A DNA stretch of 24,667 nucleotides, from IMG/VR virus record IMGVR_UViG_3300006802_000534, positions 1-24,667 of that record. The stretch is one strand, 5' to 3'. The translations under genes were made by a program, and so were the position numbers. The number at the start of each line of letters is the position of its first letter. Position 1 is the first letter of the stretch. This document shows positions 2,533-22,766 of the stretch, one piece after another. The notes under the pieces are model-generated. The model did not search any database. It worked only from the letters and a program-made list of their open reading frames with translations, and was not told the origin of the DNA. Origin of the DNA: a virus.

Positions 2533-3570
2533 TTACGCCTCGGTCGCTGCGTTCCAATGAAACACGACGTTCCGTTTCGCGATGCCGGGAATCCAGTTGT
2601 CATACATGCGATGCCCAATTTCGAACGGGTCGTTCGAGACTTCGAACGTGTCGTAATACGCCCGGGTCGGATTGTTCGCGTTCAACGCGTTAGAAGCTCG
2701 GTGCACCTTGAAGGGCTTACCGGCGACCTGCGAGTTCGGATCGAGAACATTCGAGACCGTGACGATCATTCGATTGTCGGCGATCGGCGCCTGAAGCGCG
2801 CCGGCGAGATCTGGGTATTCTTCGTGAAGGATAACCCACGTGATACCGTTCCACGTGAAAGACTCGAACATCGCGTTCGAGTTATCCGGATCGCTCGACT
2901 GCTGGGCGACGAACGCGGCGTTGACTTGCGGAATCCCGATAAATCGGCCGCCCGTGTACGCGTTCATGAACACCAGGTTAGGCGCTTGACCCGACTGGCG
3001 CAGATACTCGTTTTTCATCGAGAGGATATAAGGGAAGATCGTCGCCGACGCGTTGTTAAGCGCGAGTGTCGGCGGTGTCAGGTTCCCGATATCTTCCGTG
3101 AACGGAACAGTCACCAGAAAGTCGCCGTCCTGATAGGTGAACTGCTTGTCGTTGATCATCGACAAAACCGACCAGTGCATGAGGTTCATGCGCCGATCTT
3201 CTTGCATCTCGGTTGACATGCGAACGCCGTCGGCCGAGATCGCGTAGGAATTGCCCGAACGCTGAACCATCTTCGAATCGGTCGCTTTAAAACCTTCGTA
3301 GTTCTTGACGTGAAACGGCGAGCGATACGCCTTCTCGGTCTGTCGGCCTTCCGTTTTGATCGAGCTGTCGGCGAACCCGACAATATTCGCGAACCGATCG
3401 ACGGGTTGAATCAGGATATCGAGTTCGATCTTCTCGCTATCGTGCGAGACCGGGTCGACGAAGTTAAGGATCGCGCGCGGGCGATACTCAAGCTCGTCGG
3501 TCATGCCGTTAAGCAATTCCGGAGTGAGTTCCTCGGGTGTATAAAATTCTTTGATTCTTTGACGTGCCAT
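2533..3570 (-). CDS. Major capsid protein (lambda gpE-type, HK97 fold)
   Basis: This 345-residue protein is close to the usual size of lambda gpE-family capsid proteins (about 340). Family-like features are an N-terminal segment ending in an R-P-R-A-x-L-x-F pattern (about residues 30-37), an extended arm with YEGFKATDSKMVQR (about 90-104), a central helix-rich part with MNLMHWSVLSMI (about 127-139), and a C-terminal beta part that includes a conserved IADNRMIVTVSNVL stretch (about 263-276). It would form the icosahedral shell around the scaffold. It follows the decoration gene by 69 nt and has its own ribosome binding site (AGATAGGATC, then ACACA before ATG). The UUCG hairpin downstream fits a high-abundance product. 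Confidence 0.88.
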   Translation of the reverse strand: MARQRIKEFYTPEELTPELLNGMTDELEYRPRAILNFVDPVSHDSEKIELDILIQPVDRFANIVGFADSSIKTEGRQTEKAYRSPFHVKNYEGFKATDSKMVQRSGNSYAISADGVRMSTEMQEDRRMNLMHWSVLSMINDKQFTYQDGDFLVTVPFTEDIGNLTPPTLALNNASATIFPYILSMKNEYLRQSGQAPNLVFMNAYTGGRFIGIPQVNAAFVAQQSSDPDNSNAMFESFTWNGITWVILHEEYPDLAGALQAPIADNRMIVTVSNVLDPNSQVAGKPFKVHRASNALNANNPTRAYYDTFEVSNDPFEIGHRMYDNWIPGIAKRNVVFHWNAATEA

Positions 3571-4486: not shown

Positions 4487-5170
4487 TTAGAGTCGAGTTT
4501 TCTTTTTCTTGCTACCGGCCGCAAGTGCCTTGCCGAGTTCGTAGTCGGATTCGAATTCATCCGGCGCGCCGCCCGATCTGTCGCCAGGCTTTCCGGCGCC
4601 GCTGTTCGGGTTTGCAGTAGAGCCCGGCGCGCCAGTTCCGAAGAACTCGGGAAAATCTTTCTTGATCGTCTCGGCCGTTGCCGATGCGCCGACCATAGCG
4701 CCCGAGTCGTCGACGGTTATCGCCGACAAGTCTGCGACGCGAAGAACGGCCGCGATACGATCGGGGCGAACGCCGATAAGCGCCGCGGCGTCGCGTAGCG
4801 CGCTCTCGCGAAGCATCCCGGTTAACCTTGCCTCGGCGTCGGCGCGCTTCTTAGACTCGGCGCTCGCGAGTTCCTGAGCCCTTTCAAGTTCGGTCTTCTT
4901 GGCGTCGGCCGCTTCGTCGCGCTCGCGTTCGAGTTTCTCGCGCGCTTTGCGTTCGCGTTCGAGACTTAGTTCGAGCGCCTTTAGCTTGTCGGCCGCGCCA
5001 GTGTCGGGAACCACGACGGGCGGAATAGGATTAGTTTCGGCCGCTTGGCCCTTGGGTTGCGTCGTACTCGCGCCGCCGTCGGCGCCGGCGTCGTCTTCGC
5101 CCTCGGCCTTGAATTGGAACATGTGATCGATCTGGCGCTTCCAGTTCTTGTGCTTCTTATTCTTTCGCAT
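4487..5170 (-). CDS. Capsid scaffolding protein
   Basis: The chosen ATG at 5170 gives 227 residues and has GGAGAC about 10 nt upstream; an in-frame upstream extension to 5245 would overlap the 62-residue gene almost entirely and is less likely. The protein has a basic start (MRKNKKHKNWKRQ), an acidic Asp/Gly/Ala linker, a long coiled coil of Glu/Lys/Arg/Ala (about residues 65-135), then a more globular part with RDAAALIGVRPDRIAAVLR and a conserved-looking KDFPEFFG motif (about 180). A basic C-terminus ends KKKKTRL. This is the usual build of DUF4355/gp46-like scaffolds, where a basic tail binds capsid subunits. It overlaps the preceding gene by 14 nt. No capsid protease gene is visible nearby. 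Confidence 0.78.
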   Translation of the reverse strand: MRKNKKHKNWKRQIDHMFQFKAEGEDDAGADGGASTTQPKGQAAETNPIPPVVVPDTGAADKLKALELSLERERKAREKLERERDEAADAKKTELERAQELASAESKKRADAEARLTGMLRESALRDAAALIGVRPDRIAAVLRVADLSAITVDDSGAMVGASATAETIKKDFPEFFGTGAPGSTANPNSGAGKPGDRSGGAPDEFESDYELGKALAAGSKKKKTRL

Positions 5171-5345
5171 TGGTTTTTGTCTCCACTGGTTGATCTTCCC
5201 GATCGTCGCCAAACGAATGACGCGAATCGATCTTCTTACTGACACTTTTAGCGTCGAGGCTCAATAGCTCGGCCTCGATCTCGGTCTCGGGCCGAAGCGC
5301 GACGATCGTCTTTCCGTTGATCGTTTTGTATGTTCTAGTTTTCAC
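5157..5345 (-). CDS. Small hypothetical protein between MuF-like and scaffold genes
   Basis: This 62-residue protein starts at a GTG overlapping the MuF-like gene stop as GTGA, with GAGGGTGA just upstream as the ribosome binding site. The first 25 residues look like a small beta hairpin (TYKTINGKTIVALRP), followed by a charged helix. It overlaps the scaffold start by 14 nt, so it is embedded in a translationally coupled head cassette. No known family is recognised. Codon use matches its neighbours. Confidence 0.6.
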   Translation of the reverse strand: MKTRTYKTINGKTIVALRPETEIEAELLSLDAKSVSKKIDSRHSFGDDREDQPVETKTNAKE

Positions 5346-8086
5346 TTTTCACCCTCGGCCGCTTTAAGCGCGGCCGCCTTCTCTTCTTTGCGTCGGGCCG
5401 CTCTCGCGATAGACGCTTCGAACTCGGCCTCGGCGTCGGCGAGCGCCCTCTTCCGTTTAATGTCCTCGATCGAATCGCCCTTATCAACGATCGGCCCTTT
5501 CGCGATCTGCTCGTCGAGAGTCTTCTCGCGCGCGTCAGAAACGAACCCTCGCCCCTCGCCGTCGATCTTAAACCCGATCTCTTCCTTGCGTTCTTCGATT
5601 CGTTTCTTTTCTTCGATCGCCCGGCGTCGAGCGGCCTCTTCTTGGACTGAACGATCGAAGTCGATATCGCTGTAACGGTTGTATTTACCTCGCCGGATCG
5701 CGTCCATTCGATCTTCGACGGCTTTCTCGAACCGGTCTTCTGTTGATACCTCGGCGACCTTGTCCTTCATGGATTCGCGCGCCTGCTTTGCATAACCGGC
5801 CGAGGGTCCGCCAACTACCCGAGAGCCTAGCGCCGAAAGAAACGGATCGTCGTCGTCGCCCTTGTCCGGCTTCCTGAGCGCGACACTAAACCAATCATCG
5901 ACGTCGGCCGTTTCTTGGATCGATAGTGCGACGGCCGTTCGCGGGTCTTCGTTTTTAATAAAGGCCATGATCTTTGCGAAGTCGTCCTCTTTGCCGAGTA
6001 TGACCGCGCCCGTCGTCGGGTCGACGTAGTCTTCGAGCCTCTCAGCTAACCGCTTCATGTGGTCCAGTTTAAACCCGCCGATGTCGACGGGCACTCGGTT
6101 TCCGGCCGAATAATATGTTCGAGTTCCTGAGAATATCGGGTTGCCCGTCTTCATGTGAACAAGGGTAAACGAACCGTCGCCGACGCCGTCTTCTGTCGCG
6201 ATCCCGAAGTTCCCGCTTATGACGCCGCGGACCGAAACGGCCTCGTAACCCTCGGCCCGGTTCCTGAGTACGTTAAAACTTCGTCGAGACCAGGTACCCG
6301 GCGCCGCGGGTTTTACCTTCTCGTTAACAAGGCCGAGACGGTCGCCGAGAATGTCGATCGCCTTAACGCCGTTCACCTTCTCGGCGACGAAAGACTCGGG
6401 AATCGCCGCGGCGTATTGAATTCGAAGGGTATCGAGCGCGGCGTCGAGACTGCTCTCGCCGACCTTGGTTAACCCGTTCGCGCCGAACATGCCCGAGCGA
6501 TCGAGATACTTCGCGGCGTCCTGTAGCCCTTCCTTCGAATACTCTCGGCCCTGTAGGAGCGTTCGACCGCTTGGAGTGTGTTCGAGTCGCGCTCGGCCGC
6601 TAGAGTCTTCGAGAACGCCCCACGGGCCGGCCTCGATCGCGTCTGGGTCCAAGTCGCGAGCGTTAAACGGTCCAGACTGCCAGTCGCCAGAACCGAACCG
6701 AAGCGCGGGCGGGTCTGATAGCACCAGGAATTCGCGCTGGTTGCCGTAGCGACCGTTACGCCAGCCGGGCGCGTCGACGCTCGCGAGAATTCGTCGCGTG
6801 TCCATATCCGAATAGATTACGCCGCCGTCGCGCCCGGCGAACTTCTTCGCGACGTTAACATCGTCGGTCCACGCCTCGACTGTACCGTCGATCGTGGTTT
6901 GGCTTTTTACGCCACGATATAGGCGAACCGACTCGACGCCGCGGTAATGTTCCTGCGTGTCTTCGTAGGTTCGGCGCAAGTCTGAGCGCATCTCGCCGAG
7001 ATCGCCGGGAATCGCTCGGCCTCTCGGGTTCCAGACAGCGCCGTCGAGCTCGAACTCGGTTCGCGCCGCTTCTTTGATCGCGACGGCGCCGGCCGAGTTC
7101 GAACTGTTCGTCCAATCGAGGATCAAGTCTTCGCGGCGTCGGTCGAAGGTGTCGACGGGCGCGCGTGGTGCCTGAGTCGAGGCGGTTGTCGGCGCGACTG
7201 GCGCGCGGCCGGCGAGTTCGCGGTTGCGAGCCTTCTCGGCCTCGACCCGAGCGATACCCTCTTCGACCGGCACGAGTTCGAGATCCTCGCCGTCGTCAAT
7301 CCAAGGTATTTCTTTTTCTCGGTCGTTCGGCCGGCCGGGCGGGTGCAGGAATGAGCGCCCGTCGCCGTCGACGAAGTTCTCTTCGAGATCTCGTACTTGC
7401 CCTTGCATCGGGTAGGAGTCGGAACCGGTTCGAGAGTCGAACGTTACGATCGCCGACTTGCGGACCGGTATGTCGTAAATGTCCCGGGCGTTTTTGAGCC
7501 CTTCCAAGTGCGCGCCGTTGTACGCCGTGAATAGCTCGGTTCGAAAGATTCGATCCGCTTTCCACCGTTCGGCGCCGATCGCGCTTTGTAGCGTGTCGAT
7601 AATAGGGTCGGCGAACGTCTTCGTCGCCGTCGCCGCCGAGAGTTCCTCGCGAACCCGTCGAGCGATATCCGGCCCCCAAGTCGCGAGCGAACTCGGTATT
7701 CGTTCGATCGCAGTCTGTCTTGAGAGTTCGCCAAGCGACGCCAGGTTAAGCGGCCGCGATTCCGCGCCGAACCGGTTAAGCCACGACGAAAGCTCTCGCT
7801 CGGCGTGACTCGGCGCCATTAGGAGCCCTTCGCCGAGGATCTCTTCGAGCGCGGTCTCTAGGTCGACGGTCGTTTCGAGCGCGGTTAAGCGCGCCAAGAT
7901 CTCGACCTCGCTAGCTTGCAGCGCCTCGAAGTCGGAATACTGGCGGAACTGTTGATCGTTCTCGATTCGCGCGAGCGCCCGTTCGAGCGTTCGGCCGACC
8001 CGAACCCGGGCGTCGCGCTCAAGCCTGATTAGCTGGGCGTGATGCGTTCGCGCGAGCGCGAGTATTTCGTCGGGAACTTTCGGCAT
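5342..8086 (-). CDS. MuF-like head morphogenesis protein fused to an ADP-ribosyltransferase-like domain
   Basis: This 914-residue protein is far larger than a typical gp7/MuF protein (about 250-400). Residues about 1-265 match the phage head-morphogenesis domain: helical N-terminus, then RIFRTELFTAYN (180-190) and a segment ending in FLHPPGRPNDREKEIPW (246-262), the usual conserved C-terminal loop of the family. After a linker (about 275-315), residues about 320-460 resemble an R-S-E-class ADP-ribosyltransferase: LYRG with Arg391, an AWTDDVNVAKKFAG stretch (405-418) in place of the S-T-S strand, and a Q-x-E motif (Gln450, Glu452) before FLVL. The serine position looks like Ala405, so activity is uncertain. 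Residues 460-770 are unrecognised; 770-914 are highly charged and probably coiled coil. Its start overlaps the portal stop as TAATG. MuF proteins enter the capsid, so a fused enzyme could be delivered with the DNA. Confidence 0.8.
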   Translation of the reverse strand: MPKVPDEILALARTHHAQLIRLERDARVRVGRTLERALARIENDQQFRQYSDFEALQASEVEILARLTALETTVDLETALEEILGEGLLMAPSHAERELSSWLNRFGAESRPLNLASLGELSRQTAIERIPSSLATWGPDIARRVREELSAATATKTFADPIIDTLQSAIGAERWKADRIFRTELFTAYNGAHLEGLKNARDIYDIPVRKSAIVTFDSRTGSDSYPMQGQVRDLEENFVDGDGRSFLHPPGRPNDREKEIPWIDDGEDLELVPVEEGIARVEAEKARNRELAGRAPVAPTTASTQAPRAPVDTFDRRREDLILDWTNSSNSAGAVAIKEAARTEFELDGAVWNPRGRAIPGDLGEMRSDLRRTYEDTQEHYRGVESVRLYRGVKSQTTIDGTVEAWTDDVNVAKKFAGRDGGVIYSDMDTRRILASVDAPGWRNGRYGNQREFLVLSDPPALRFGSGDWQSGPFNARDLDPDAIEAGPWGVLEDSSGRARLEHTPSGRTLLQGREYSKEGLQDAAKYLDRSGMFGANGLTKVGESSLDAALDTLRIQYAAAIPESFVAEKVNGVKAIDILGDRLGLVNEKVKPAAPGTWSRRSFNVLRNRAEGYEAVSVRGVISGNFGIATEDGVGDGSFTLVHMKTGNPIFSGTRTYYSAGNRVPVDIGGFKLDHMKRLAERLEDYVDPTTGAVILGKEDDFAKIMAFIKNEDPRTAVALSIQETADVDDWFSVALRKPDKGDDDDPFLSALGSRVVGGPSAGYAKQARESMKDKVAEVSTEDRFEKAVEDRMDAIRRGKYNRYSDIDFDRSVQEEAARRRAIEEKKRIEERKEEIGFKIDGEGRGFVSDAREKTLDEQIAKGPIVDKGDSIEDIKRKRALADAEAEFEASIARAARRKEEKAAALKAAEGEK

Positions 8087-9522
8087 TATTTAGGCTCGGC
8101 GGTTCCCGATGCCATTACGCCGGAGTCGACCCGATCGAGAAACTCGCCCACGTCTTCGATATCGAGAAACGGCGCGAGATATTCGATCGCCTTCTGTCGA
8201 TCGATTAGACCGAGTTCGTAAAGCTGTACGATCGCCGCCGAGTGCTCTCGAAGGTCGACCGCCGTCGGTTCCACCACGGGCGGCCATACTGCCGAGATTC
8301 GGGTATCATCGCCAGCCTTCGAAGCGCCAGTCGCTCGAAGCATCTTTAAGAGAAGTCGGCCGAGCCCTTCTTCGTAACCGGGTCGAAGATTCTGCACCAG
8401 CAAAACCATAGGATAAAGAAGCCGTTCGAGCGCGACGCCAGAAGCGGCGCCGACGAACTGCGCCGGGTCGTGATCGACTACCTGCACGATCTCGTTAAAA
8501 AGGTTTCGAACCATTCGGGTGTAGTCCATCGCGCTTGCCGAGCCCGTTCCGTTCATCTCTAAGAGCTTGGCGTCGGCCTTGCCGCTTGCGTCGCCCGGGT
8601 CGTTTTGCACGAGTAGTGTATTGTTTCCGCCCCTTCGAATAGCGGCGTCGTTCGCCGGGTCGACGCCGACGAACAGTAGCGTCGGTTCCTGATTGTACCG
8701 AATACCGCGGCCGGTCTGCGAGAGTGTATAGTTGACTTCGTCTTCGAGACCGAACTCAACTTCTTCTACCAGCGGCGCGCCGTCGATATCGTGCGCGACT
8801 TCGATCGGCGTAATCCACTCGGCCGGCACGAACCCGAGGTTATGCGTTACGGTCGTCTCGACGTCTTCTTTCCATTTCACCTTCTCAGATATCGGCCCGG
8901 CGACCGGGAAATATTCGATCGTCGCGTTAACGGTCCAGTCTCGCCGATGCCAGGTCTCGACACGTTCGCCGGTCTCTTCGTCGTCTTTGAAGGTGCGCCA
9001 GTACTCGATCAATTCGAGAAGCTCGTCGAACGCGATACCGAGTTCGATCGCCATTGCCCGATCGTCTCGGCCGAACTTTGGTTCGGCCTTGCAGGCGCTT
9101 ATGATCTCGGTATCGATCCGGCCGTCCGAGAACACGTAAAAGCCGACCGCAACGGTCCCGTGCAGACAACCGAGTCGGCCGATCTCAAGGTATCGGCGCC
9201 GAAGTCCCGACGCCGAAACGATATCGGCGAGCGCCTCGTTTATGTCTTTGTCTTCCTGCTCGCTTTTCCACGTCGGCGCGTGACCCTCGCCGAAGAGGTG
9301 CGCGTTGATACGGTTGACCGCTTTACGGGTTAAACCGATCTGGATCGACGGCTTCTTCTCTCGAAGCGGTTTCTCGGGAGTATCCCAAGGTTCGAGATCT
9401 TCGTATTGCTTGCCCCAATAGTAGGCGCTCGCTCGATTGAAGCGCGCCTCGCGCTCGGTAAACCCTAAGACTTTCGCCATTTTCATTGCCTCGCGTAATT
9501 GTCGAACGCCGCTCGATTCCAT
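8086..9522 (-). CDS. Portal protein
   Basis: This 478-residue protein sits directly after the large terminase (one base between genes) and before the MuF-like gene, the standard portal position. It has the typical portal composition: a helical N-terminus with YYWGKQYEDL, an R-K-A-V-N-R-I segment (about 66-72) resembling the K-x-x-x-N-x-I motif of SPP1-like portals, a clip/stem part with strands around residues 120-260, and a C-terminal crown region rich in helices (about 340-478) including LLLKMLRATGA. It would form the dodecameric ring through which DNA is packaged and to which the stopper binds. Start ATG at 9522 is well placed. Family assignment rests on order, length and these segments. 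Confidence 0.85.
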   Translation of the reverse strand: MESSGVRQLREAMKMAKVLGFTEREARFNRASAYYWGKQYEDLEPWDTPEKPLREKKPSIQIGLTRKAVNRINAHLFGEGHAPTWKSEQEDKDINEALADIVSASGLRRRYLEIGRLGCLHGTVAVGFYVFSDGRIDTEIISACKAEPKFGRDDRAMAIELGIAFDELLELIEYWRTFKDDEETGERVETWHRRDWTVNATIEYFPVAGPISEKVKWKEDVETTVTHNLGFVPAEWITPIEVAHDIDGAPLVEEVEFGLEDEVNYTLSQTGRGIRYNQEPTLLFVGVDPANDAAIRRGGNNTLLVQNDPGDASGKADAKLLEMNGTGSASAMDYTRMVRNLFNEIVQVVDHDPAQFVGAASGVALERLLYPMVLLVQNLRPGYEEGLGRLLLKMLRATGASKAGDDTRISAVWPPVVEPTAVDLREHSAAIVQLYELGLIDRQKAIEYLAPFLDIEDVGEFLDRVDSGVMASGTAEPK

Positions 9523-9523
9523 C

Positions 9524-10993
9524 TTATGCCACCAGGTCGAAAGCGTCGAAGCTCAAGCCCTTCGTGATTTCTTCCGTTACGAAGAGTCGGTTTCGCTTCG
9601 CTTCTGTATAGACACCATAACGCAAAGCATCAACCGAGTGATCGCCCTCTTTGACCGGCTTGCCGCTGCTGTCGTCTTTCCAGCGGTACGAAGCAAGTTC
9701 TCGTCGAAGGTTCTTACAGTCTTCGTGGATATAGAGCGTCGGCCGCATAACACCATCAGCTCGGCGAACCGGCTTAAGCAGCGTCGCCAGAAGATCTATC
9801 CCGGGATTTACCGAGTTATCGGCGCGGCGAATATCGAGCTTTTCTTGTCTAAACATTACAATGTTCGCGGGCTCGCTCGGGTCGGCCCAAGCGTGCGCGA
9901 CGCCGCGCTTCTCGGCCGCCTTAAATCGGTCGCGCCACGAGTCGACGCCGATCGAATCGGGGGGAGGCATAAGAGGCAGCTCGCGTTGATAGTCTTCGCG
10001 GTAGGCGATCAAATAGCCTTCGAGCGTTAGACCGATCTCGATTTGCGAGCCCGGGTTACTGTGCCCCCAGTCGATCCCGGCGAACCTACGGTAAACGCTC
10101 GGCGGTATGCTCTTAACGATGTGCGTCGCGTCGTCGACGAAGTCTTCGAACACCTTACCCTCGAACGCGTCGAAGCTCGCTTCGTAGTTCCGAAGGTATA
10201 GCGCCTTCGAGAGTGTCGCCTTAGCCTCGGCCGCTTCTGCCACGAGATGCGGTAGCGAGGTATTGTCGACGGTTCTAAAGTGAATGTTCGCATAACCCTC
10301 GCGCGACTGAGCCCAAAGATCCGAATGTACCCAATTCTTGCCCATTGGCGTGGTTGTGAACAGCGACCAGCCTAGCCGATCGGATAGCGCCGGGCGCAAG
10401 TTATCGGCCCACGTTGCCGACTTGATTCGCGCCGCTTCGTCGAGCCAGGCACCATTGAGACCCGAACCCACAAGTCGAAGCGGGTTGTCGGCCGATTTGA
10501 ACTCGATCAAGATTCCTCCGCGCAGCCACAACGCGTTCTCGGTCGACGAATAACGAAGAATCAAGGGCGAGTCGACGCCGCCCAAGATCTCGAAGATCTC
10601 GCGCCGCTGGTAGACGCCGAGAGCATAGGTCGGCGCTACGCACCAATACCACGTGAACGGCTTAGTCTCGGCCGATATCCTCGCCGGTGCGGTCCACGTT
10701 GCACCCTTGCCGACCTCGGCCCAATAGTCGCGAACGATGCGTTTAAAGAACTCTCGGCCGCCGCCGTAGGTCTTGCCCGAGCGTCGACCGGCGACAACCG
10801 TAACGAAGCGGTTCTCAATCATTGCTTGCGCGAGGTTTTCCTGCGCGCCGTGCGGGTGGTACGTCGAAAGGTGTTCACGGGCGAACGCTTCGATCGAAGG
10901 GAAGCTCTCGCCGATCCCGCCCGTGATTCTTTGGAATAGCGGCGCCAGCTTTGCGAGCGCGCCGTTAGTGTAATTTCGTGAGTTTGTTTTCAT
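9524..10993 (-). CDS. terL: Terminase large subunit
   Basis: The ATG at 10993 gives 489 residues, overlapping the small terminase gene by 29 nt; the open frame continues upstream but that part is out of family and inside terS. The ATPase domain shows a Walker A-like GRRSGKT (69-75), preceded by VTVVA, and a Walker B LDEAAR (184-189) with the catalytic Glu next to Asp185, plus a coupling-motif-like FTTTPMGKNW (212-221). The nuclease domain has the RNase H-like acidic residues in FAGIDWG (Asp308), AWADPSEP (Asp371) and GDHSVDALRY (Asp451, Asp455). The protein pumps DNA into the prohead and cuts the concatemer. All key residues appear present, so it should be active. Confidence 0.95.
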   Translation of the reverse strand: MKTNSRNYTNGALAKLAPLFQRITGGIGESFPSIEAFAREHLSTYHPHGAQENLAQAMIENRFVTVVAGRRSGKTYGGGREFFKRIVRDYWAEVGKGATWTAPARISAETKPFTWYWCVAPTYALGVYQRREIFEILGGVDSPLILRYSSTENALWLRGGILIEFKSADNPLRLVGSGLNGAWLDEAARIKSATWADNLRPALSDRLGWSLFTTTPMGKNWVHSDLWAQSREGYANIHFRTVDNTSLPHLVAEAAEAKATLSKALYLRNYEASFDAFEGKVFEDFVDDATHIVKSIPPSVYRRFAGIDWGHSNPGSQIEIGLTLEGYLIAYREDYQRELPLMPPPDSIGVDSWRDRFKAAEKRGVAHAWADPSEPANIVMFRQEKLDIRRADNSVNPGIDLLATLLKPVRRADGVMRPTLYIHEDCKNLRRELASYRWKDDSSGKPVKEGDHSVDALRYGVYTEAKRNRLFVTEEITKGLSFDAFDLVA

Positions 10994-11531
10994 CGCCCAA
11001 AACTTCGAGAAGTGAGTCGACGGCGAGTGCTCTCGATTCCTGCTCGGCCGCGGTCTCGAAAAGTTTTGCGGTTGCTTGAATGAATTTCGGAAGTTCGCGC
11101 GGGCATAACACGAGTTCGGTGTCTTTCTCGAAGACTTCGAGCGAACGCTCAATAATTGCCATCGCTCGGATCGCGTTACGGGTCGACGCCTCGGCATAGC
11201 TGAGAAGTCGCTCGCGGAACCCGTTTAACTTGGCGACGTGGTCGATCTCCATTCGGGCGACGCTTGCGGCGTCCTGATACCGATCGAAGGCCAGCACGCG
11301 GGCGACCCAATCGTTCGCCGAACTCCACGCGGCGAAGTATCCCGGCGCCCGTTTGTTCTTTGGCGGTTCGCCGGTTCTCTCGACGGCGTAGGCGCTCCAC
11401 GCGGCGAGCATAGTCCGCTCGATCGGGACCATGTCGCGGTAATACTTAAACGCGGCCCATTGGGCGTCAGTTTCGCGCTGTAGGCGTTCCCAAGGTTCGG
11501 CCGGGCGTTCTGTCGTCTGTTCGTCTAACAT
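10965..11531 (-). CDS. terS: Terminase small subunit-like protein
   Basis: This 188-residue protein starts at an ATG with a clear GGAG (ACGGAGACGC) upstream. It is helical, with an N-terminal segment PWERLQRETDAQWAAFKYYRDM (read as two pieces around residue 20-37) followed by an R-x-x-x-x-A-x-x-W pattern and W-V-A-R-V-L-A-F-D-R-Y (about 75-85). Such Trp-rich helical stretches are common in phiKZ-unrelated siphophage small terminases that recognise the packaging site. The remaining 90 residues are long helices suited to ring formation. Immediate linkage and overlap with terL supports the name. The packaging site itself could not be located in this window. Confidence 0.75.
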   Translation of the reverse strand: MLDEQTTERPAEPWERLQRETDAQWAAFKYYRDMVPIERTMLAAWSAYAVERTGEPPKNKRAPGYFAAWSSANDWVARVLAFDRYQDAASVARMEIDHVAKLNGFRERLLSYAEASTRNAIRAMAIIERSLEVFEKDTELVLCPRELPKFIQATAKLFETAAEQESRALAVDSLLEVLGDENKLTKLH

Positions 11532-12075: not shown

Positions 12076-12831
12076 CTAGCCTAAGAGCGCTTTTTTCGCG
12101 GTGGCCACTGTGTGGGGAGTCTGGGCGTTGCCAAGGGCCGTAAGTCGGTCCACCCGATCGGGAACCCCATAAGCCATTCGATCCATTCTGGGTTCAACGG
12201 TCCAGATACTACCATCGAGAGATTGACCTGTTTCCCGATCGCGATCCGGCGTTTCACGACCGGATCTTCTGGGTTGCCTCGATTCCGAGAGTCGGCGGCC
12301 GCAGGTGTCGGAACACTCGATATCCCGCAAGGTGGCGGCGATCCAAAGCCGATCGCGCTTATGCGGTGCGCCAACGTCGGCAGCTCCCAAGATTCCCCAC
12401 TCAAGATCATACCCGAGTTCGGCCAGGTCCCCGAAAACCGTTTCGATATATCTATGTTTCCCAGACATGAGGCCGGGCACGTTCTCCAAGAATAGGAATC
12501 GCGGCACCACTTGGCGAATGACTCTAACGGTAGCCGGCCACATGTTCCGCGTGTCGTCTGCGCCCTTCTGAGTTCCCGCCGTAGTGAAAGGCTGACACGG
12601 GAAACCGGCCGAAACGACGTCGACAAGACCTCGCCAAGCCGTACCGTCGAAACTTCGCACGTCATCCCAGATCGGGCACTCGTGCAGAAGTCCATCTGAC
12701 ATTCGAGCCTGAAGGATTGCGGCCGCGTAGCGGTTCCATTCGACGCAGCACACTGTATCCCAGTCGCCATACGTCCCCAGCAGACCGCCTCCAATACCTG
12801 CAAAGAGCGCGAGTTCTTTCGGCTTATCCAC
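12076..12831 (-). CDS. DNA (cytosine-5)-methyltransferase
   Basis: This 251-residue protein starts at a GTG just after the stop of the upstream gene. It shows the C5-methyltransferase motifs in order: motif I LALFAGIGGG (8-16, SAM binding), motif IV GFPCQPF (76-82) with catalytic Cys79, motif VI LENVPG (115-120), motif VIII KRDRLWI (158-164), and motif X GNAQTPHTV near the C-terminus (about 232-240). The part between motifs VIII and X is only about 65 residues, so the target-recognition region is short. It transfers a methyl group from SAM to cytosine, and in phages such enzymes usually protect DNA from host restriction. No cognate nuclease is nearby. A second frame is also open over the same DNA but lacks any of these motifs. 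The gene lies between two copies of a promoter cassette. Confidence 0.93.
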   Translation of the reverse strand: MDKPKELALFAGIGGGLLGTYGDWDTVCCVEWNRYAAAILQARMSDGLLHECPIWDDVRSFDGTAWRGLVDVVSAGFPCQPFTTAGTQKGADDTRNMWPATVRVIRQVVPRFLFLENVPGLMSGKHRYIETVFGDLAELGYDLEWGILGAADVGAPHKRDRLWIAATLRDIECSDTCGRRLSESRQPRRSGRETPDRDRETGQSLDGSIWTVEPRMDRMAYGVPDRVDRLTALGNAQTPHTVATAKKALLG

Positions 12832-12832
12832 A

Positions 12833-13030
12833 TTAAGACCCCGCGAGCGCGTCGAGCTGTGATAGTGCGTCGGCGGCGTTTCGATAGTGATTCATGATCC
12901 CGTGGACGAAGATCATGTCGAGCGCCGGAACAACTACGATCGTACCCTTGCCCATAACCTCGCCAAAACTCGGGTGCTGACCCGGTTTAAATCCGCGCTT
13001 TTCGAGTTCTTTCTTAAAATTCTTATTCAT
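12833..13030 (-). CDS. Small hypothetical protein paired with the cytosine methyltransferase
   Basis: This 65-residue protein starts at an ATG (13030) with the AAGGATCGACC leader and ends two bases before the methyltransferase start, so both are probably made from one transcript. It begins with a basic helix (MNKNFKKELEKRGFKPG), then shows a G-K-G-T-I-V-V-V-P strand and a C-terminal helix. No known domain is recognised. The genetic pairing suggests a partner or regulator for the enzyme, but nothing in the sequence proves it. Confidence 0.6.
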   Translation of the reverse strand: MNKNFKKELEKRGFKPGQHPSFGEVMGKGTIVVVPALDMIFVHGIMNHYRNAADALSQLDALAGS

Positions 13031-13110
13031 GGTCGATCCTTCGATGTTTGTTTCCTAACGCCCCCAGAAGATAGCGACGCCCTTCTCGCCCGTCAACCAT
13101 TATTATTGTT
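13026..13110 (-). repeat. Promoter/leader cassette, copy 1
   Basis: Matches the copy at 11991-12073 in two exact 20-nt blocks: 13026-13045 (ribosome binding site and start region) and 13091-13110 (upstream element plus -35). The second block overlaps the stop codon of the XF1762-like gene, which ends in TAA at 13103-13105. Confidence 0.9.
13068..13096 (-). promoter_or_regulatory. Sigma70-like promoter for the small gene and cytosine methyltransferase
   Basis: Minus-strand TTGACG (13096-13091), 17 bp, then TATCTT (13073-13068). An AT-rich element lies directly upstream. The -10 is closer to consensus than in the second copy. Predicted transcription start is about 30 nt before the ATG at 13030. 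Confidence 0.65.
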
Positions 13111-13555
13111 TAAGTTGAAGCGACCAGCGCGTCTTGACCTCGGGCCTTTCGGCGTTCTCACGATCACGTGAAACGCGGCCCCAGTTTCCGCCGCCCGCCT
13201 GTCCGTCGCTCACCCAGTTTGACGCCCTGAGGCTCGCGCCGCCCTCTTCTGGCAACGTATATGTGACGATCTTCTCATAGCCCATGCTCTTTGCGATCCT
13301 CACCGCGGCACCGTAAAGCATAGAGCAAGCGTTACGTGCGCCGTCAGTGGCAACGCGCGTAACTTCAAGCGTGAACCCGTCGTCAAGCATTCGCGCAACT
13401 GGTCGGCCGACAATGGCAACGCCTCGGATCTCACCGGCCTCGTCAGTCACTGACAAAACGAAGACCGCGCCGGCCGGAGCCCTTAAGTGTCGGTGATGGT
13501 CTGCGACGAAAGCCTTTGCGGCTTTATGTGTGATCGGGCTTAGCTTGATTCGCAT
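13103..13555 (-). CDS. XF1762-like (GNAT-fold) phage protein
   Basis: This 150-residue protein resembles the XF1762 family common in phages of Gram-negative hosts. Family-like features are KAAKAFVADHHRHL (residues 12-25), the strand FVLSVTDEAGEIRGVAIVGRP (32-52 region, read in parts), a core V-T-R-V-A-T-D-G segment (about 65-72), the helix CSMLYGAAVRIAKSMGY and a C-terminal G-G-N-W-G-R-V/R-W motif. The layout is that of an acetyltransferase-like fold with a candidate acyl-CoA loop, but the catalytic role is unknown for the family. It is the last gene of the early leftward operon, and its stop codon overlaps the next promoter's upstream element. An AGGTAGGT ribosome binding site precedes its ATG. 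Confidence 0.75.
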   Translation of the reverse strand: MRIKLSPITHKAAKAFVADHHRHLRAPAGAVFVLSVTDEAGEIRGVAIVGRPVARMLDDGFTLEVTRVATDGARNACSMLYGAAVRIAKSMGYEKIVTYTLPEEGGASLRASNWVSDGQAGGGNWGRVSRDRENAERPEVKTRWSLQLKQ

Positions 13556-13569
13556 GTACCTACCTCGCT

Positions 13570-14271
13570 TTAGATCTCGAATCTAGGCCAGGTCGTGAGC
13601 GTTCGCCCCTTCTCGCCGTGCTCTCGATCCCAAATAAACCATGCAGACGTGCAGTTATTCTGGTTCCTCGCGTTGATATAGTGAACCCTCGGGAGAATTA
13701 GGATCTCGGTCGGCGGATCGTCGAATAGGATCTGAGCCCGGTCTTTGCACGGTTCGAGCATCGTTAACCGCAAGAGCATCGCGACCGAAGCGCCCGTCGC
13801 TAACATCTTCTTAACGAAGTCGCTCGCCATAACGGTTCGCCCGTCGATCTTGATAACGAAAGGCGGGTTCGAGACGTACCAGTCGACGCCGGCGAAGGGT
13901 TCTTCGACCAGGAAGTCGCGCGCCGGCATATCGGCGCCCCTGCCTCGGTCTCGCGACCAGTGGAACGAATCGGCGCCCGGGTCGATATCCGTTCCGAGGT
14001 AGTGCGTTACGGGCTCGTGCATTCGAAGCGCGCGACCGATCCAGTCGGCCCCACAGCAAGGCTCGTGCACTTTGCCGGCGAGACGGTCGCCGAGGTACGC
14101 GAGAAGAGGCTCGGTCGCCGAGACGGGCGTGTAATACCGATCGAGAGAGTCGCGCTTCGACTTCTTCTTCTTTGGTTTCTCGACCTCGGCGTCGGCCGCG
14201 CAATAGGAGCACGGCCGCTCGAATATTTCACGAGAGCACTTGTCGCAGTGGTCGATCTCGTATTCGTTCAT
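13570..14271 (-). CDS. Putative N6-adenine-type DNA methyltransferase with N-terminal zinc knuckle
   Basis: The ATG at 14271 shares ATGA with the upstream stop and gives 233 residues; a GTG at 14280 in frame is an alternative. Residues 9-24 carry Cys9, Cys12, Cys21 and Cys24 in a C-x2-C-x8-C-x2-C arrangement, likely binding zinc. After a Lys-rich linker comes D-R-Y-Y-T-P (44-49), a HEPCCGADWIG motif I (69-79) for SAM binding, Y-L-G-T-D-I-D (91-97), and the catalytic motif IV S-N-P-P-F (134-138), typical of amino-methyltransferases. A C-terminal alpha/beta half follows. It probably modifies phage DNA, and may give protection together with the cytosine enzyme. The target base is inferred from S-N-P-P-F only; a protein or RNA substrate is not excluded. 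Confidence 0.75.
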   Translation of the reverse strand: MNEYEIDHCDKCSREIFERPCSYCAADAEVEKPKKKKSKRDSLDRYYTPVSATEPLLAYLGDRLAGKVHEPCCGADWIGRALRMHEPVTHYLGTDIDPGADSFHWSRDRGRGADMPARDFLVEEPFAGVDWYVSNPPFVIKIDGRTVMASDFVKKMLATGASVAMLLRLTMLEPCKDRAQILFDDPPTEILILPRVHYINARNQNNCTSAWFIWDREHGEKGRTLTTWPRFEI

Positions 14272-14480
14272 TTTACCCACCTTCCGTTCTTAAATTCTCG
14301 AAGCGATTCGCCGGGCTCGTCAATCCAGTCGACTGTCACAATATTAATTGATCCGCACTTTACACACGTAATCTTACCGACGTCGCGATCGGCCACAACG
14401 CCGATCCAGATCGAATAACACTCACGACAAACGAGCGTGATAGCGTTCCAGCCTATTCGGCCGACGACTTCGCCGCTCAT
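14268..14480 (-). CDS. Small zinc-ribbon protein
   Basis: This 70-residue protein has two Cys pairs, C-R-E-C (residues about 18-21) and C-V-K-C (39-42), separated by about 17 residues, as in a minimal zinc ribbon. Short beta strands flank the pairs. It overlaps both neighbours by ATGA, the characteristic coupling of this operon. Small zinc ribbons of this kind bind nucleic acids or partner proteins in many phages. No specific function can be claimed. Confidence 0.6.
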   Translation of the reverse strand: MSGEVVGRIGWNAITLVCRECYSIWIGVVADRDVGKITCVKCGSINIVTVDWIDEPGESLREFKNGRWVK

Positions 14481-14803
14481 CGGTCGACCCTGTTTCGAAA
14501 CATGGTCTTAGGATAGGCGCCGCTCTTAGGAATCACGATCCGATCGGGTTGCCCGTTAAGCTGCCAGAATTCCCAGATCTCGCCGGGTTGCGGTATGTCG
14601 TCGCCGTGTTGAACCGGGCTACTCTCATCAGGCCAAGCGCCGCGACCTCGCTCCTTCTTGCGTTCGAGTCGGTCGACTTGCGCCAGTGCGAAGGCTGCCA
14701 GCTCGATAAACTCGGCGGCATCTTTCGGCGCCACGTTAATTCGAGCGGTCTTGTCGAGCCTCTCGGCCGTCGCTCGAAGTCGGTTAAGTTTTTTCTGTTT
14801 CAT
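14477..14803 (-). CDS. Hypothetical early protein
   Basis: This 108-residue protein starts at an ATG whose A-T-G-A overlaps the end of the short frame upstream. The N-terminal half is a long basic helix (KQKKLNRLRATAERLDK, then a DAAEFIELAAFALAQVDRL helix), followed by a Pro/Gly-rich segment with QPGEIWEFWQLNG (about residues 71-83) and a basic end. This recalls small proteins with a C-terminal SH3-like strand pair (P-G-E-I-W motif). No family is recognised with confidence. Confidence 0.55.
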   Translation of the reverse strand: MKQKKLNRLRATAERLDKTARINVAPKDAAEFIELAAFALAQVDRLERKKERGRGAWPDESSPVQHGDDIPQPGEIWEFWQLNGQPDRIVIPKSGAYPKTMFRNRVDR

Positions 14804-14945
14804 GATTCGACCTCGGCGAGCGCGGTTAAGCGGTTGTTATGGTAGTCGACGCTCTCAAGTCTAGATCGGCGAAGAGTGCCAGTCGACGTGATCGCCCTTC
14901 CGATCTCTTCGCGGTCACTCGGCCGCGCTGCTTTTCTTCTGACAT
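14800..14945 (-). pseudogene. Small ORF apparently interrupted by a single-base frameshift
   Basis: The gap between two ATGA-coupled genes holds a reading frame that ends with TGA overlapping the next ATG (ATGA) and has phage-like codons through its last 30 residues (ending LTALAEVES), but has no start codon in that frame. An ATG at 14945 with GAGGGGTGAGT upstream lies in the neighbouring frame, which stops early. The two would join as MSEEK + AARPSDREEIG if the run of four A residues (minus strand; 14935-14932) were five. This is either a homopolymer sequencing error, a true mutation, or slippage at G-AAA-A. Confidence 0.5.
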
Positions 14946-14947
14946 AC

Positions 14948-15340
14948 TCACCCCTCGCTAATGTTGTTTAAGAAGCTGAACTCGCCCGCATCGGTCGCCC
15001 TGATCCGCTCGTTACACTCGGCAAGGTTGCGCGTCAAAATATCGTGCCAAACCTTCGTGCGTTCGTTCATTCGAGCGACCGCGGTCTCGACGGTCGGCCG
15101 CAAGATCCGCGAGTTGTACCCGTACCACTTCGACGGGCCGAACGGCCTCGCGCTGATGTTCCACCCGATAACGTCGTCGCCGTCATAGTCGAACGAATCG
15201 CACTGGCGAGCGTGGAAGCCTTGCGGCGTGCAAGCCGTCACGACGTAGCACTTGATCCGGATCTTGGTTTCGCCGACTTCCTGATTCCATCGCGCGTGAA
15301 AGGCGAAGTCGCCAGGCTCCAAAGTTTGAAGTATTTTCAT
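14948..15340 (-). CDS. Hypothetical early protein
   Basis: The start is taken at ATG 15340, which forms ATGA with the upstream stop; the open frame extends further upstream, but only inside that gene. The product has 130 residues. It opens with a beta-like segment (LEPGDFAFHARWNQEVGE), contains a C-Y-V-V-T-A-C-T stretch around residues 31-38 and a Trp/Tyr-rich middle (ARPFGPSKWYGYNSR), and ends in a long helix with ERTKVWHDILTRNLAECNERI. No known domain is recognised. It sits in the small-gene early operon and shares its codon use. Confidence 0.55.
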   Translation of the reverse strand: MKILQTLEPGDFAFHARWNQEVGETKIRIKCYVVTACTPQGFHARQCDSFDYDGDDVIGWNISARPFGPSKWYGYNSRILRPTVETAVARMNERTKVWHDILTRNLAECNERIRATDAGEFSFLNNISEG

Positions 15341-15678
15341 CGATCTACCTCGCAAGCCGGACAATTCTCGCCGAGTGAGTGTCGCCGCGAGTGCTCGGGC
15401 GAGTTCCTCGGGCAATCGAGCGCCCCTTCGACGTCCTCTAATGTCCATTCCGATACGTCACAATCGAACAAGTCGATCACGAGTCGCGAGACCAGAACCC
15501 GAAATCGCTCGAAGTCTTCGGCGTGTCGCCAGTCGCTAAGGTCTGCGTGCGCGTCGATGTGATGCGTCGCGCTATCCCAAGAGTGATCGAATTCCGAGAT
15601 CGATAGACCGCGATCGCGAACGAACGCGACCTTCTGCTCGGTCTTATGTATGAGCAGATCGCCCTTTTTAACTTCCAT
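15337..15678 (-). CDS. Hypothetical early protein
   Basis: This 113-residue protein starts at an ATG preceded by the recurrent leader AACGAGGGTCAGAAC. The N-terminus looks like a small beta barrel (MEVKKGDLLIHKTEQKVAF, typical of short phage proteins that begin with K-K-G-D-x-[VI]), followed by an acidic helical part containing several His and Asp residues (SATHHIDAHADLSDWRH, about 37-53). Two Cys lie in a C-terminal part (GENCPACEV, C-x2-C). Functional assignment is not possible. It opens a group of three coupled genes (15678 to 14800). Confidence 0.55.
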   Translation of the reverse strand: MEVKKGDLLIHKTEQKVAFVRDRGLSISEFDHSWDSATHHIDAHADLSDWRHAEDFERFRVLVSRLVIDLFDCDVSEWTLEDVEGALDCPRNSPEHSRRHSLGENCPACEVDR

Positions 15679-15726
15679 GTTCTGACCCTCGTTTTTGCGC
15701 CAGCTCGGCCGGCGCGGTTGTAATAT

Positions 15727-16032
15727 TTAGACCCGAAACGGGTTAACGTAATATGACCCGTTTGCGACGCGTGACTTCTCGGCGATAGCTTCGTCGAGAG
15801 CGCCGATAGGGTACTCGTGCAGTTTCAACGCGTAAAGCGCGAGCCTTGCCCACAGCTCGCACGACTCGCAATAACGGAACGTCTGGAAGCCGATTCGGGG
15901 CCACTTGCCCGAGAGCATCGGGTATCGTTCGCCGCGCTCGATTGTCAGAAGACACTCAAAACACGCATGATCGCGCTTCGCCCGTTGCCAGGTCCAGCGC
16001 GAGAAGATCGGCGGGTTAAGCTCGGCCTTCAC
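15727..16032 (-). CDS. Small protein with two Cys pairs, likely zinc-binding
   Basis: The start is a GTG at 16032 overlapping the upstream stop as GTGA, giving 101 residues. The protein has C-F-E-C (about residues 24-27) and C-E-S-C (about 55-58) pairs; the spacing and the basic/aromatic surroundings (FSRWTWQRAKRDHACFEC, ERGERYPMLSGKW) match small phage zinc ribbons such as those found beside recombination genes. It ends with a helix and YYVNPFRV. It is followed by a 48-nt gap holding the leader of the next gene. Confidence 0.6.
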   Translation of the reverse strand: MKAELNPPIFSRWTWQRAKRDHACFECLLTIERGERYPMLSGKWPRIGFQTFRYCESCELWARLALYALKLHEYPIGALDEAIAEKSRVANGSYYVNPFRV

Positions 16033-16679
16033 GGTTCGAGCCCTTCCTTCCAAGGAATCACGCCGACCGATTCCCAATTCGCCGAAGCGGTCGCCGCGGT
16101 CGCGGTATTCGGCGGATCAAGGTTGTTGGCGAGCCTTCGAAGCTCGGCGCCGATCTTGTTTGCTTCTCGAAGCACGTCGTCGCGTTGCTTCTTAACTTCC
16201 GAAAACTGTTCGAATGCCTTCGAGCTGGCTTCGTCGAACAGTCGCTTCGTCGTATCGAGTCGCGATTGTAGGCGGTCGGCCCGTTCGATTGCGGCGTCGC
16301 TCGGTAGCGACTTCGAGTCGAGAAGGTCTTCGAACGCCTTATTCGCGGCGAGCGTCGGGTCGAACCCGAGCGCGGCGACTATGTTTCGGTATTCTTTCGC
16401 GGCGTTCTGGCGGTTATCTGCGACCAGACTACCGACGAAGTATTCACACGCGGTTTTGAGTCGATCGAGAGTTACGCCGCTAACGTCCTGACTGCATCCG
16501 TTTTGGTGCGAGCATAGTGTAGGCGCGAGCGCGAGTTCGGCCTTCAACCGTTCGATCTCTTCGTCGGCCTGCTTCGAGACCGCGCTTATTCTGGCCTGCA
16601 GAGTGTCGACGGTCGCGTTGTAGTGTTCCAACCGGATAAAGCCGGGCGGAACTTCCTGATAGGGTTTCTCGCCACTCAT
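16029..16679 (-). CDS. Coiled-coil hypothetical protein
   Basis: This 216-residue protein starts at an ATG forming ATGA with the XRE gene stop. It is mostly helical: an N-terminal coiled coil (LQARISAVSKQADEEIERLKAELALA, read across residues 28-54), a middle helical domain with a single pair C-S-H-x-x-G-C (57-63 region), and a long C-terminal coiled coil (about 130-190). The last 25 residues are Thr/Ala-rich. Such proteins are common as uncharacterised early genes of siphophages. It is coupled with the regulator upstream and may act with it, but this is only inference from position. Confidence 0.6.
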   Translation of the reverse strand: MSGEKPYQEVPPGFIRLEHYNATVDTLQARISAVSKQADEEIERLKAELALAPTLCSHQNGCSQDVSGVTLDRLKTACEYFVGSLVADNRQNAAKEYRNIVAALGFDPTLAANKAFEDLLDSKSLPSDAAIERADRLQSRLDTTKRLFDEASSKAFEQFSEVKKQRDDVLREANKIGAELRRLANNLDPPNTATAATASANWESVGVIPWKEGLEP

Positions 16680-16897
16680 AGCGAACCGCCTTCGACCGGC
16701 GCGCCGATCGTGAACGAACCGAGTTCGGTCGAGAGCCTAAGAAGGCTCGTAATCGTCGGCGCGACTTCGCCCCGTTCCCACGCCCCTAGGTGGCCCTGCA
16801 TCGTTCCCACCTTCTCGGCGAGCGCCTTCTGAGATAGTCGAAGGTCGACTCGCCGTTCGCGAATTGCCTTCCCGAGTTCTTCGATGTTCTGGATCAT
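16676..16897 (-). CDS. XRE-family (Cro/CI-type) transcriptional regulator
   Basis: This 73-residue protein is essentially a single helix-turn-helix domain: AIRERRVDLRLSQKALAEKVG (residues about 11-31, read in two helices), then a turn and recognition helix MQGHLGAWERGEVAPTITSLLRLS. The L-S-Q-x-x-L-A-x-x-V-G and W-E-R-G patterns are diagnostic of the family. It lacks a dimerisation or peptidase domain, so resembles a Cro-like repressor or a plasmid/phage antirepressor partner. A good ribosome binding site (AGGAGACGAAC) precedes the ATG. It may bind operators in the 18.7-18.9 kb non-coding region; no operator match could be proven. Confidence 0.88.
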   Translation of the reverse strand: MIQNIEELGKAIRERRVDLRLSQKALAEKVGTMQGHLGAWERGEVAPTITSLLRLSTELGSFTIGAPVEGGSL

Positions 16898-16906
16898 GTT
16901 CGTCTC

Positions 16907-17401
16907 CTACTTGATTACGGTTCTATTCCACTGTGTTAACGTTTCGGCCTCTTCGAGAATCGCCACGTCGACCGCGCCGGACTTGAACGCCATTAACTCG
17001 ACTTGATCGAAGAGTTCGTCGCCGGACCGATTAGGCGCCGTCCCGAACTCTTCGAAGTATCGAATGACGTGTCTGGCGTCGATCCTGAATCGCTCGCGCT
17101 TGACCTCGTGCCGAACGTCGAGCCCGGCCGCTTTGCGATCGAGAGCAACGCGACAGAGTCGAACGTTGCCACCGTAACCATTTTCGCACCTAACGTCTAG
17201 CAGGTTGTCGGGCGATATCATGCGGCCGAGGTAGTGACAGCAAAAGTCAATATGGTCCGCCAGACTGTACGTCGGCAAGTTCCCGCGCTTCGACTTCGAG
17301 ACCGCGCCGGCCGCGGTTCGGTTTGGTTGATACAGCTCGGCGAGCCAGGTCTCGATCTGTTCGGCGATCTCGCGTTCGTCGGCCTTGGTTGTTACTCGCA
17401 T
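16907..17401 (-). CDS. Hypothetical early protein
   Basis: This 164-residue protein overlaps the upstream regulator gene by 10 nt. It has an N-terminal helix (DEREIAEQIETWLAELYQP), a middle part with two Cys near H-I-D-F-C-C-H-Y-L, a C-E-N-G-Y-G-G-N-V-R-L-C-R strand, and basic segments (DVRHEVKRERFRIDARHVIRYF, about 98-119). No fold or catalytic pattern is recognised. The location between two XRE genes suggests a role in early control, but only by association. Confidence 0.55.
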   Translation of the reverse strand: MRVTTKADEREIAEQIETWLAELYQPNRTAAGAVSKSKRGNLPTYSLADHIDFCCHYLGRMISPDNLLDVRCENGYGGNVRLCRVALDRKAAGLDVRHEVKRERFRIDARHVIRYFEEFGTAPNRSGDELFDQVELMAFKSGAVDVAILEEAETLTQWNRTVIK

Positions 17402-17727
17402 CGTAGTCGAGCCTCTTCTTTGGCCTTCCTCGACTGGTAGCGCGCTTCGTCTCGCTCGCTCAACGGGTAAAGCTCGGCGACCAGTGCGTCGATCCGTTGT
17501 CGGTTCGCTTCACGCTCGGCGAACGCTCGGTCGAATACGTCGCCGGCGCAATCGGCGATAATGTCGAGCACGGGTCGCTTGCCGGTCTCAAGAAGCGCAA
17601 CGTAGGATTGCGAAAGTTCCAGCCTCTCGGCAAGTTCGATCTGCGTCAGTCCGGCTTCGAGTCGGCATTCGCGAAGTGCAGCTATCACGCGGGCGCGCGC
17701 GAAGCGGGGCTCACTGTTTTTTGTCAT
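17392..17727 (-). CDS. XRE-family transcriptional regulator
   Basis: This 111-residue protein carries an N-terminal helix-turn-helix (residues about 14-55): ALRECRLEAGLTQIELAERLELSQSYVALLETGKRPVLDII, recognised in pieces by L-T-Q-x-E-L-A-x-x-L and S-Q-S-Y-V-x-x-x-E-T-G-K-R. The C-terminal half is an Arg/Glu-rich helical tail that may support dimerisation. It is coupled by ATGA to the upstream gene. With the second XRE gene at 16676 it forms a pair of regulators in one early operon, which is typical for a phage switch. Targets are unknown. Confidence 0.88.
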   Translation of the reverse strand: MTKNSEPRFARARVIAALRECRLEAGLTQIELAERLELSQSYVALLETGKRPVLDIIADCAGDVFDRAFAEREANRQRIDALVAELYPLSERDEARYQSRKAKEEARLRCE

Positions 17728-18889: not shown

Positions 18890-18953
18890 CGATAGGATCG
18901 TAACCGTGAAACTAGCTAATCAGGCTGTTTCTGTAATAAACGAGGGTCAAAAA

Positions 18954-22745: not shown

Positions 22746-22766
22746 GTTTTCCCTATTTCTGCGAGT

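What the first reader, a model, noticed from the sequence alone, without database searches (positions are those of the whole stretch)
5342..8086. Head morphogenesis protein fused to an ADP-ribosyltransferase-like domain
The MuF-like N-terminus (about residues 1-265) is followed by a region with LYRG (Arg391), AWTDDVNVAKKFAG and a Q-x-E (450-452), the layout of R-S-E-class ADP-ribosyltransferases; Q-x-E rather than E-x-E recalls C3-type enzymes that do not modify arginine. MuF proteins are packaged in the capsid and MuF-toxin fusions are an established theme, so this may be an enzyme injected with phage DNA to modify a host target. The serine of the S-T-S strand appears to be alanine, so the domain may be degenerate. 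Residues 460-770 match nothing I recognise and could be a further effector.
Basis: partly seen in the sequence, partly recalled or inferred. Interest (0 to 1): 0.72.

Follow-up and report, generated by a model that had tools for sequence, protein, structure and literature searches.

The report
Phage capsid protein carrying ADP-ribosyltransferase cargo
An environmental phage makes a minor head protein with an ADP-ribosyltransferase-like enzyme built into it, one of several interchangeable cargos that related phages carry at the same spot; it is probably injected with the DNA to modify host molecules, which is a known theme, here in a divergent enzyme branch that the standard protein-family databases searched do not recognise.

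Summary
The gene is a 914-aa ORF on the minus strand (8086→5342), between portal and scaffold genes. The N-terminus (1-265) is a divergent MuF: the window itself is weak (Pfam E 0.057), but 7 of 8 relatives match MuF, best 3.6e-8. Residues 318-470 are a compact R-S-E-type ART. Arg, Q-x-E and the KFAG helix are invariant in the window and two relatives. More distant MuF-fused relatives have S-W-T and E-x-E at the same positions. A five-sequence AlphaFold model (pTM 0.65) has ART-like topology; ARTs head the PDB fold search (weakly, E 0.16), and profile comparison with phage ARTs beats shuffles. The Ala for Ser is not clear decay. Residues 480-700 hold a duplicated, non-catalytic-looking unit, not evidently a second effector. 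Related phages carry other cargo behind the same MuF (C39 protease, kinase-like, HELGH metallopeptidase-like) or none. One near-identical phage lacks exactly residues 321-776. MuF-ART fusions are already described, so this is a new member of a known kind. Activity, delivery and target are untested.

The parts
7292..8086 (-). MuF-type minor head protein domain, residues 1-265
   Evidence: Family A11: 7 of 8 members match Pfam Phage_Mu_F, best E 3.6e-8; window itself 0.057; PHROG head morphogenesis E 0.0054; follows the portal gene directly
7136..7291 (-). variable Ala/Pro-rich linker, residues 266-317
   Evidence: sequence; alignment to L003, L010, L013
6677..7135 (-). ART-like domain, residues 318-470
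   Evidence: alignment A6, AlphaFold model with 5 sequences, pTM 0.65, fold searches, hhalign against phage ARTs with controls
6914..6916 (-). Arg391, predicted NAD-binding Arg (strand 1, LYRG)
   Evidence: invariant in all five aligned sequences
6866..6874 (-). A405-W406-T407, position of the S-T-S motif
   Evidence: L010 AWT, L013 SYS, L021 and L022 SWT
6731..6739 (-). Q450-R451-E452, predicted catalytic Q-x-E
   Evidence: Q-x-E in window, L010, L013; E-x-E in L021, L022; a Pfam-recognised phage ART in Gordonia phage GMA2 also has Q-R-E
6467..6637 (-). first copy of a beta-rich unit, residues 484-540
   Evidence: hhalign with the second copy: P 8.1e-5, prob 61
5993..6292 (-). second copy of the unit, residues 599-698
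   Evidence: conserved in L010 and L013
5345..5761 (-). C-terminal charged helical tail, residues 776-914
   Evidence: tblastn to L002, L010, L013; helical in the model (low confidence overall)
5757..7126 (-). 1370-nt cargo segment (residues 321 to about 776) absent from the 94%-identical phage L002
   Evidence: blastn segments 13058-17541 and 18912-24666 of the reverse complement abut in L002 at 6960/6961
5157..5345 (-). 62-aa ORF whose GTG overlaps the stop of the MuF-ART gene; weak candidate for a cognate inhibitor
   Evidence: homologues only in L002 and L010 among the loci compared; no function tested
8086..9522 (-). portal protein, SPP1 gp6-like
   Evidence: Pfam SPP1_portal 1.1e-14
4487..5245 (-). 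scaffolding protein
   Evidence: Pfam Phage_scaffold 2.5e-13
2533..3570 (-). major capsid protein
   Evidence: Pfam Phage_cap_E 5.9e-6
9524..11197 (-). terminase large subunit
   Evidence: phrog_2 2.5e-31

Best explanation
The protein is a minor head (MuF) protein with an ADP-ribosyltransferase domain placed between the MuF domain and a helical tail. Inferred working: the MuF part places it in the head near the portal during assembly; the protein, or a processed cargo part, enters the host with the phage DNA; the ART domain binds NAD+ with Arg391 and the S-T-S-type strand and uses Glu452 to transfer ADP-ribose to a host molecule early in infection, as T4 Alt does. Gln450 in place of the first Glu predicts a target other than arginine (asparagine, another residue, or a nucleic acid base). 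The duplicated 484-698 unit and the tail are probably binding, packaging or linker parts. Shown here: domain architecture, motif conservation, ART-like topology, variable cargo and a cargo-less sibling. Inferred: packaging, injection, catalysis, target.
For: Gene context portal - MuF - scaffold - capsid. MuF family membership through relatives. R391, Q450, E452 and the A-x-K-F-A-G helix invariant in window, L010 and L013; canonical S-W-T plus E-x-E in L021 and L022, which are clear MuF proteins (Pfam 1.8e-10 and 2.5e-11). AlphaFold with five sequences: pTM 0.65, mean pLDDT 69, strands at 386-393 (Arg), 403-407 (S-T-S position) and 451-456 (Q-x-E). Foldseek: the four best PDB matches are mono-ARTs (Vis, ExoS), with C3 exoenzyme and a KptA-type phosphotransferase also in the top ten; viral matches up to E 3.6e-5 include a head-morphogenesis fusion. 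hhalign against T4 Alt, ModA, ModB and GMA2 ART: score 37.0, against 17.7 for the best of 60 column shuffles and 14.4 and 11.3 for two unrelated alignments, with Arg and S-T-S motifs in register. ART and MuF domains diverge alike: 59.5/63.4% identity to L010, 39.9/42.0% to L013. Other cargo behind the same MuF: C39 protease E 2.2e-6 in L007; HELGH in L010 and kinase-like in L013 and L016 (weak, partly by eye). Published precedents: Bxa (PMC11699363), Percival gp4 (PMC7302621), ART survey (PMC9503650), T4 Alt (PMC5512222).
Against: No Pfam, NCBIfam or PDB sequence match to any ART. PDB fold matches are individually weak (best E 0.16; TM about 0.3-0.37 for the ART matches), and the model is only moderately confident. 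The first Ser of S-T-S is Ala, and the published CT/C2/C3 signature (PMC7764402) is not met. A very close phage (L002) lacks the cargo, so it is dispensable at least there. No data on virion content, delivery or activity.
Confidence: 0.72

Rival explanations
1. It is an ART fold that has lost catalysis and now serves only as a binding or structural part of the head protein.
For: Ala405 replaces the first Ser of S-T-S; Gln replaces the first Glu of E-x-E; L002 lacks the module, L013 has an in-frame TAG inside the cargo and L016 a frameshift.
Against: Arg391, Gln450 and Glu452 are invariant in three divergent copies; Q-x-E is a known active form (PMC7764402) and occurs in the Pfam-recognised GMA2 ART; Ka of the ART is close to that of MuF.
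Confidence: 0.15
2. It is a MuF polymorphic toxin in the strict sense: a toxin-immunity pair that a temperate phage uses against competitors of its lysogens, with the 62-aa ORF downstream as the immunity gene.
For: A small ORF overlaps the stop and is found in two ART-bearing phages and L002, but not in C39-, kinase-like- or cargo-free relatives; [quoted passage not shown]
Against: No phage integrase (PF00589) and no ADP-ribosyl hydrolase (PF03747) in 11 records searched, though many are fragments; the small ORF persists in L002 without the cargo, and window and L010 are close relatives, so the co-occurrence may be plain descent; the ART lies mid-protein, not C-terminal.
Confidence: 0.13
3. 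The region is not an ART; LYRG, KFAG and QxE are conserved for another reason in an unrelated alpha-beta fold.
For: No sequence-level match to any ART model; moderate model quality and weak PDB E-values.
Against: Strand order, register of three motifs, E-x-E and Ser at the same positions in relatives, and profile-profile signal above controls.
Confidence: 0.07

Closest known systems
Bxa of Bacteroides stercoris prophage (MuF-ART; PMC11699363)
   Same: MuF-type minor capsid protein fused to an ART in the head gene cluster; relatives carry other enzymes on the same MuF
   Different: Bxa has its ART at the C-terminus, modifies arginine and has adjacent immunity genes including an ADP-ribosyl hydrolase; here the ART is internal, Q-x-E, and no hydrolase gene was found
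MuF-VIP2 fusions of Microbacterium phages Percival, Goodman and Johann (PMC7302621)
   Same: MuF fused to an R-S-E-clade ART in phages; Floof, related to Percival, lacks the ART just as L002 lacks it here
   Different: Those ARTs are recognised as VIP2; this one is not detected by Pfam or NCBIfam
T4 Alt (PMC5512222; fetched)
   Same: R-S-E ART thought to act early after delivery from the capsid
   Different: Alt has no MuF fusion, has a full S-T-S and E-M-E, and modifies host RNA polymerase; target unknown here
MuF polymorphic toxins (Jamet et al. 2017, PMC5576092)
   Same: MuF N-terminus with a swappable enzymatic part; small ORF downstream
   Different: Those are in temperate phages with C-terminal toxins; lifestyle unknown here, ART internal
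Polyvalent proteins of phages (PMC5512222)
   Same: several enzymatic domains in one virion-linked polypeptide; relatives L010 and L013 combine MuF, ART and a further enzyme-like domain
   Different: the main polyvalent ART family described there has an H-Y-D active site, not R-S-E

Membership tests
MuF (Phage_Mu_F, PF04233) | sequence match to the family model | tested here: met
   window E 0.057, below cut-off, but 7 of 8 members of its family match, best 3.6e-8
MuF (Phage_Mu_F, PF04233) | gene next to portal and before scaffold/capsid | tested here: met
MuF (Phage_Mu_F, PF04233) | protein present in the virion | not testable with these tools
   needs mass spectrometry
R-S-E ADP-ribosyltransferase | Arg in strand 1 | tested here: met
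   R391, invariant
R-S-E ADP-ribosyltransferase | Ser of the S-T-S strand | tested here: not met
   A405 in window and L010; Ser in L013, L021, L022: not met in the window copy, met in the subfamily; third position T407 kept
R-S-E ADP-ribosyltransferase | [QE]-x-E before the last strand | tested here: met
   Q450-R-E452
R-S-E ADP-ribosyltransferase | ART fold | tested here: inconclusive
   topology fits and ARTs lead the fold search, but E 0.16 at best in PDB; E 3.6e-5 in the viral library
R-S-E ADP-ribosyltransferase | NAD+-dependent activity | not testable with these tools
   needs an assay
CT/C2/C3 toxin signature [YFL]-R-x(27,60)-[YF]-x-S-T-[SQT]-x(32,78)-[QE]-x-E (PMC7764402) | whole signature | tested here: not met
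   only about 13 residues between Arg391 and the S-T-S position, and S is A; read off the sequence
MuF polymorphic toxin (strict) | variable C-terminal enzymatic part on a shared MuF | tested here: met
MuF polymorphic toxin (strict) | small immunity ORF downstream | tested here: inconclusive
   62-aa ORF present, function unknown, also kept in the cargo-less L002
MuF polymorphic toxin (strict) | temperate phage | tested here: inconclusive
   no PF00589 integrase in 11 records, many of them fragments

The most novel reading that the evidence does not exclude
A divergent, compact ART subfamily, unrecognised by Pfam, delivered inside virions by MuF, that switched from E-x-E to a conserved Q-x-E and so modifies something other than arginine (asparagine or nucleic acid), with the overlapping 62-aa ORF as its inhibitor during virion assembly.
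Probability: 0.2. Interest if true: 0.6.

Novelty: new member of a known kind. Interest (0 to 1): 0.4.

Why it matters
It adds a subfamily that standard databases miss to the list of virion-linked phage ARTs. It also gives a clean natural comparison: two phages about 94% identical in DNA over the packaging genes, one with and one without the cargo, plus relatives with other cargo on the same MuF. A host for these phages would make the fitness value and target of such injected cargo directly testable.

Tried and rejected
Whole-protein structure prediction from the single sequence was useless (pLDDT 39). PDB sequence searches with the window, the 3- and 5-sequence profiles and the relatives gave no ART hit. 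Two genome-collection scans found no relative, so no host could be named. The weak Touem01 match (E 2) covers only the stretch before the motifs and was set aside. Degeneracy and a second effector at 460-770 were considered and judged unlikely. Deletion in L002 as an assembly artefact cannot be excluded: the junction shows no microhomology and leaves a frameshift, although the downstream 777-914 stretch still shows Ka/Ks 0.11. hhalign of the MuF alignment with the L022 MuF was not significant. The A2 row of the hhalign controls (score 33.0) is not a valid negative control, because one of its members (L003) contains the start of the ART module.

Full report
Observation. The finding is a single ORF on the minus strand, 5342..8086, 914 aa. 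The gene lies between an SPP1-type portal and a scaffolding protein, followed by head proteins including a major capsid protein, with a large terminase upstream. The window is a virus record of 24,667 bases, probably a fragment.

MuF. Alone, the N-terminus is below any cut-off (PHROG 0.0054; Pfam 0.057). A family of eight related N-termini from viral contigs (33-63% identity to the window) matches Phage_Mu_F in seven members, best E 3.6e-8. Position and family together make MuF safe.

ART. The module at 318-470 recurs in L010 and L013 (61% and 41% identity). In these three the Arg, the Q-x-E and the KFAG helix are invariant. A further scan found L021 and L022/L023, MuF proteins by Pfam (1.8e-10, 2.5e-11), whose ART segment keeps LYRG and the KFAG helix, has S-W-T where the window has A-W-T, and E-x-E where it has Q-x-E. 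So the window belongs to an R-S-E-type group. The Ser-to-Ala change is shared with L010 but not with L013. AlphaFold with these five sequences gives pTM 0.65 and the order beta(Arg)-beta(S-T-S)-helix-beta-beta-beta(Q-x-E). In the PDB search the four best matches are mono-ARTs (Vis three times, ExoS), with C3 exoenzyme and a KptA-type phosphotransferase also in the top ten, though all with E above 0.1. In the viral library the best matches reach 3.6e-5 and include a phage head morphogenesis fusion; the Sinorhizobium phage phiM9 protein, found independently by sequence, is at rank 18. Profile-profile comparison with four phage ARTs (T4 Alt, ModA, ModB, Gordonia phage GMA2) gives score 37.0 with Arg and S-T-S positions in register; 60 column shuffles reach at most 17.7, and two unrelated alignments 14.4 and 11.3. 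GMA2's ART, which passes the Pfam cut-off, also has Q-R-E, so Q-x-E need not be a sign of decay. Published work links Gln at this place with targets other than arginine (PMC7764402).

Selection. ART and MuF domains are similarly conserved between window and L010 (59.5 and 63.4%) and between window and L013 (39.9 and 42.0%); synonymous sites are near saturation, so Ka/Ks ratios are rough. This argues for retained function.

The rest of the protein. Residues 484-540 and 599-698 each hold a short beta-rich unit around the pattern LxHxx[ST]Gxx[LI]xxG, alike by profile comparison (P 8.1e-5, prob 61). No enzyme motif was seen, so an accessory role is more likely than a second effector (inference). 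Residues 776-914 are a charged helical tail. Two relatives have a further domain after that tail: L010 a HELGH metallopeptidase-like region and L013 a kinase-like region, both weak in Pfam.

A variable cargo slot. Behind the same MuF other relatives carry a C39 protease (L007/L012, Pfam 2.2e-6), an unidentified part (L011), a kinase-like part (by eye) followed after a frameshift by another LYR...E-x-E segment (L016), or nothing (L014, L015). L002, a phage 94% identical to the window over the packaging genes, lacks exactly 1370 nt, residues 321 to about 776; its MuF reads 320 aa plus 23 out-of-frame residues. L003, at 70% identity, has the first 50 residues of the cargo before its contig ends, which suggests loss in L002 rather than gain in the window. 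Assembly error cannot be excluded.

Mechanism. By analogy with T4 Alt and the MuF fusions in the literature (PMC5512222, PMC9503650), the most likely role is an injected host-modifying enzyme. The steps of packaging, injection and catalysis are inferred. The 62-aa ORF overlapping the stop has homologues only in L002 and L010 among the loci compared and could be an inhibitor, but descent explains its distribution equally well. No integrase or ADP-ribosyl hydrolase was found in the records searched.

Novelty. [quoted passage not shown] What is added is a subfamily unseen by Pfam, its Q-x-E form, its internal position, and the natural cargo-less sibling. New member of a known kind.

Noticed in passing
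L022 656-3595 and L023 2478-5417: MuF protein fused to a type IB topoisomerase (Pfam 2.4e-22) and then to the same ART subfamily in one frame of about 979 aa.
   Followed up: partly
L007 8521-9864: Same MuF family fused to a C39-type cysteine protease (E 2.2e-6).
   Followed up: partly
L016 7001-9426: MuF, then a kinase-like region, then after a frameshift an ART-like segment with LYRS, SNS and ENE.
   Followed up: no
L013 6206-6208: In-frame TAG inside the cargo, after which homology continues in the same frame: nonsense mutation, recoding or assembly error.
   Followed up: no
L005 2770-3462 (Sinorhizobium phage phiM9 gene 063): Stand-alone hypothetical protein with LYRG and ESWTDDRKVAEHFAG, a likely ART.
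   Followed up: partly
window 13103-13555, 13570-14280, 12081-12833 (minus strand): Mom-like DNA modification protein (E 1.2e-35) next to two DNA methyltransferase-like genes, a probable DNA-modification cassette.
   Followed up: no
L010 7001-11158, about residues 1190-1202: HELGH metallopeptidase-like motif near the end of a 1385-aa MuF-ART protein.
   Followed up: partly
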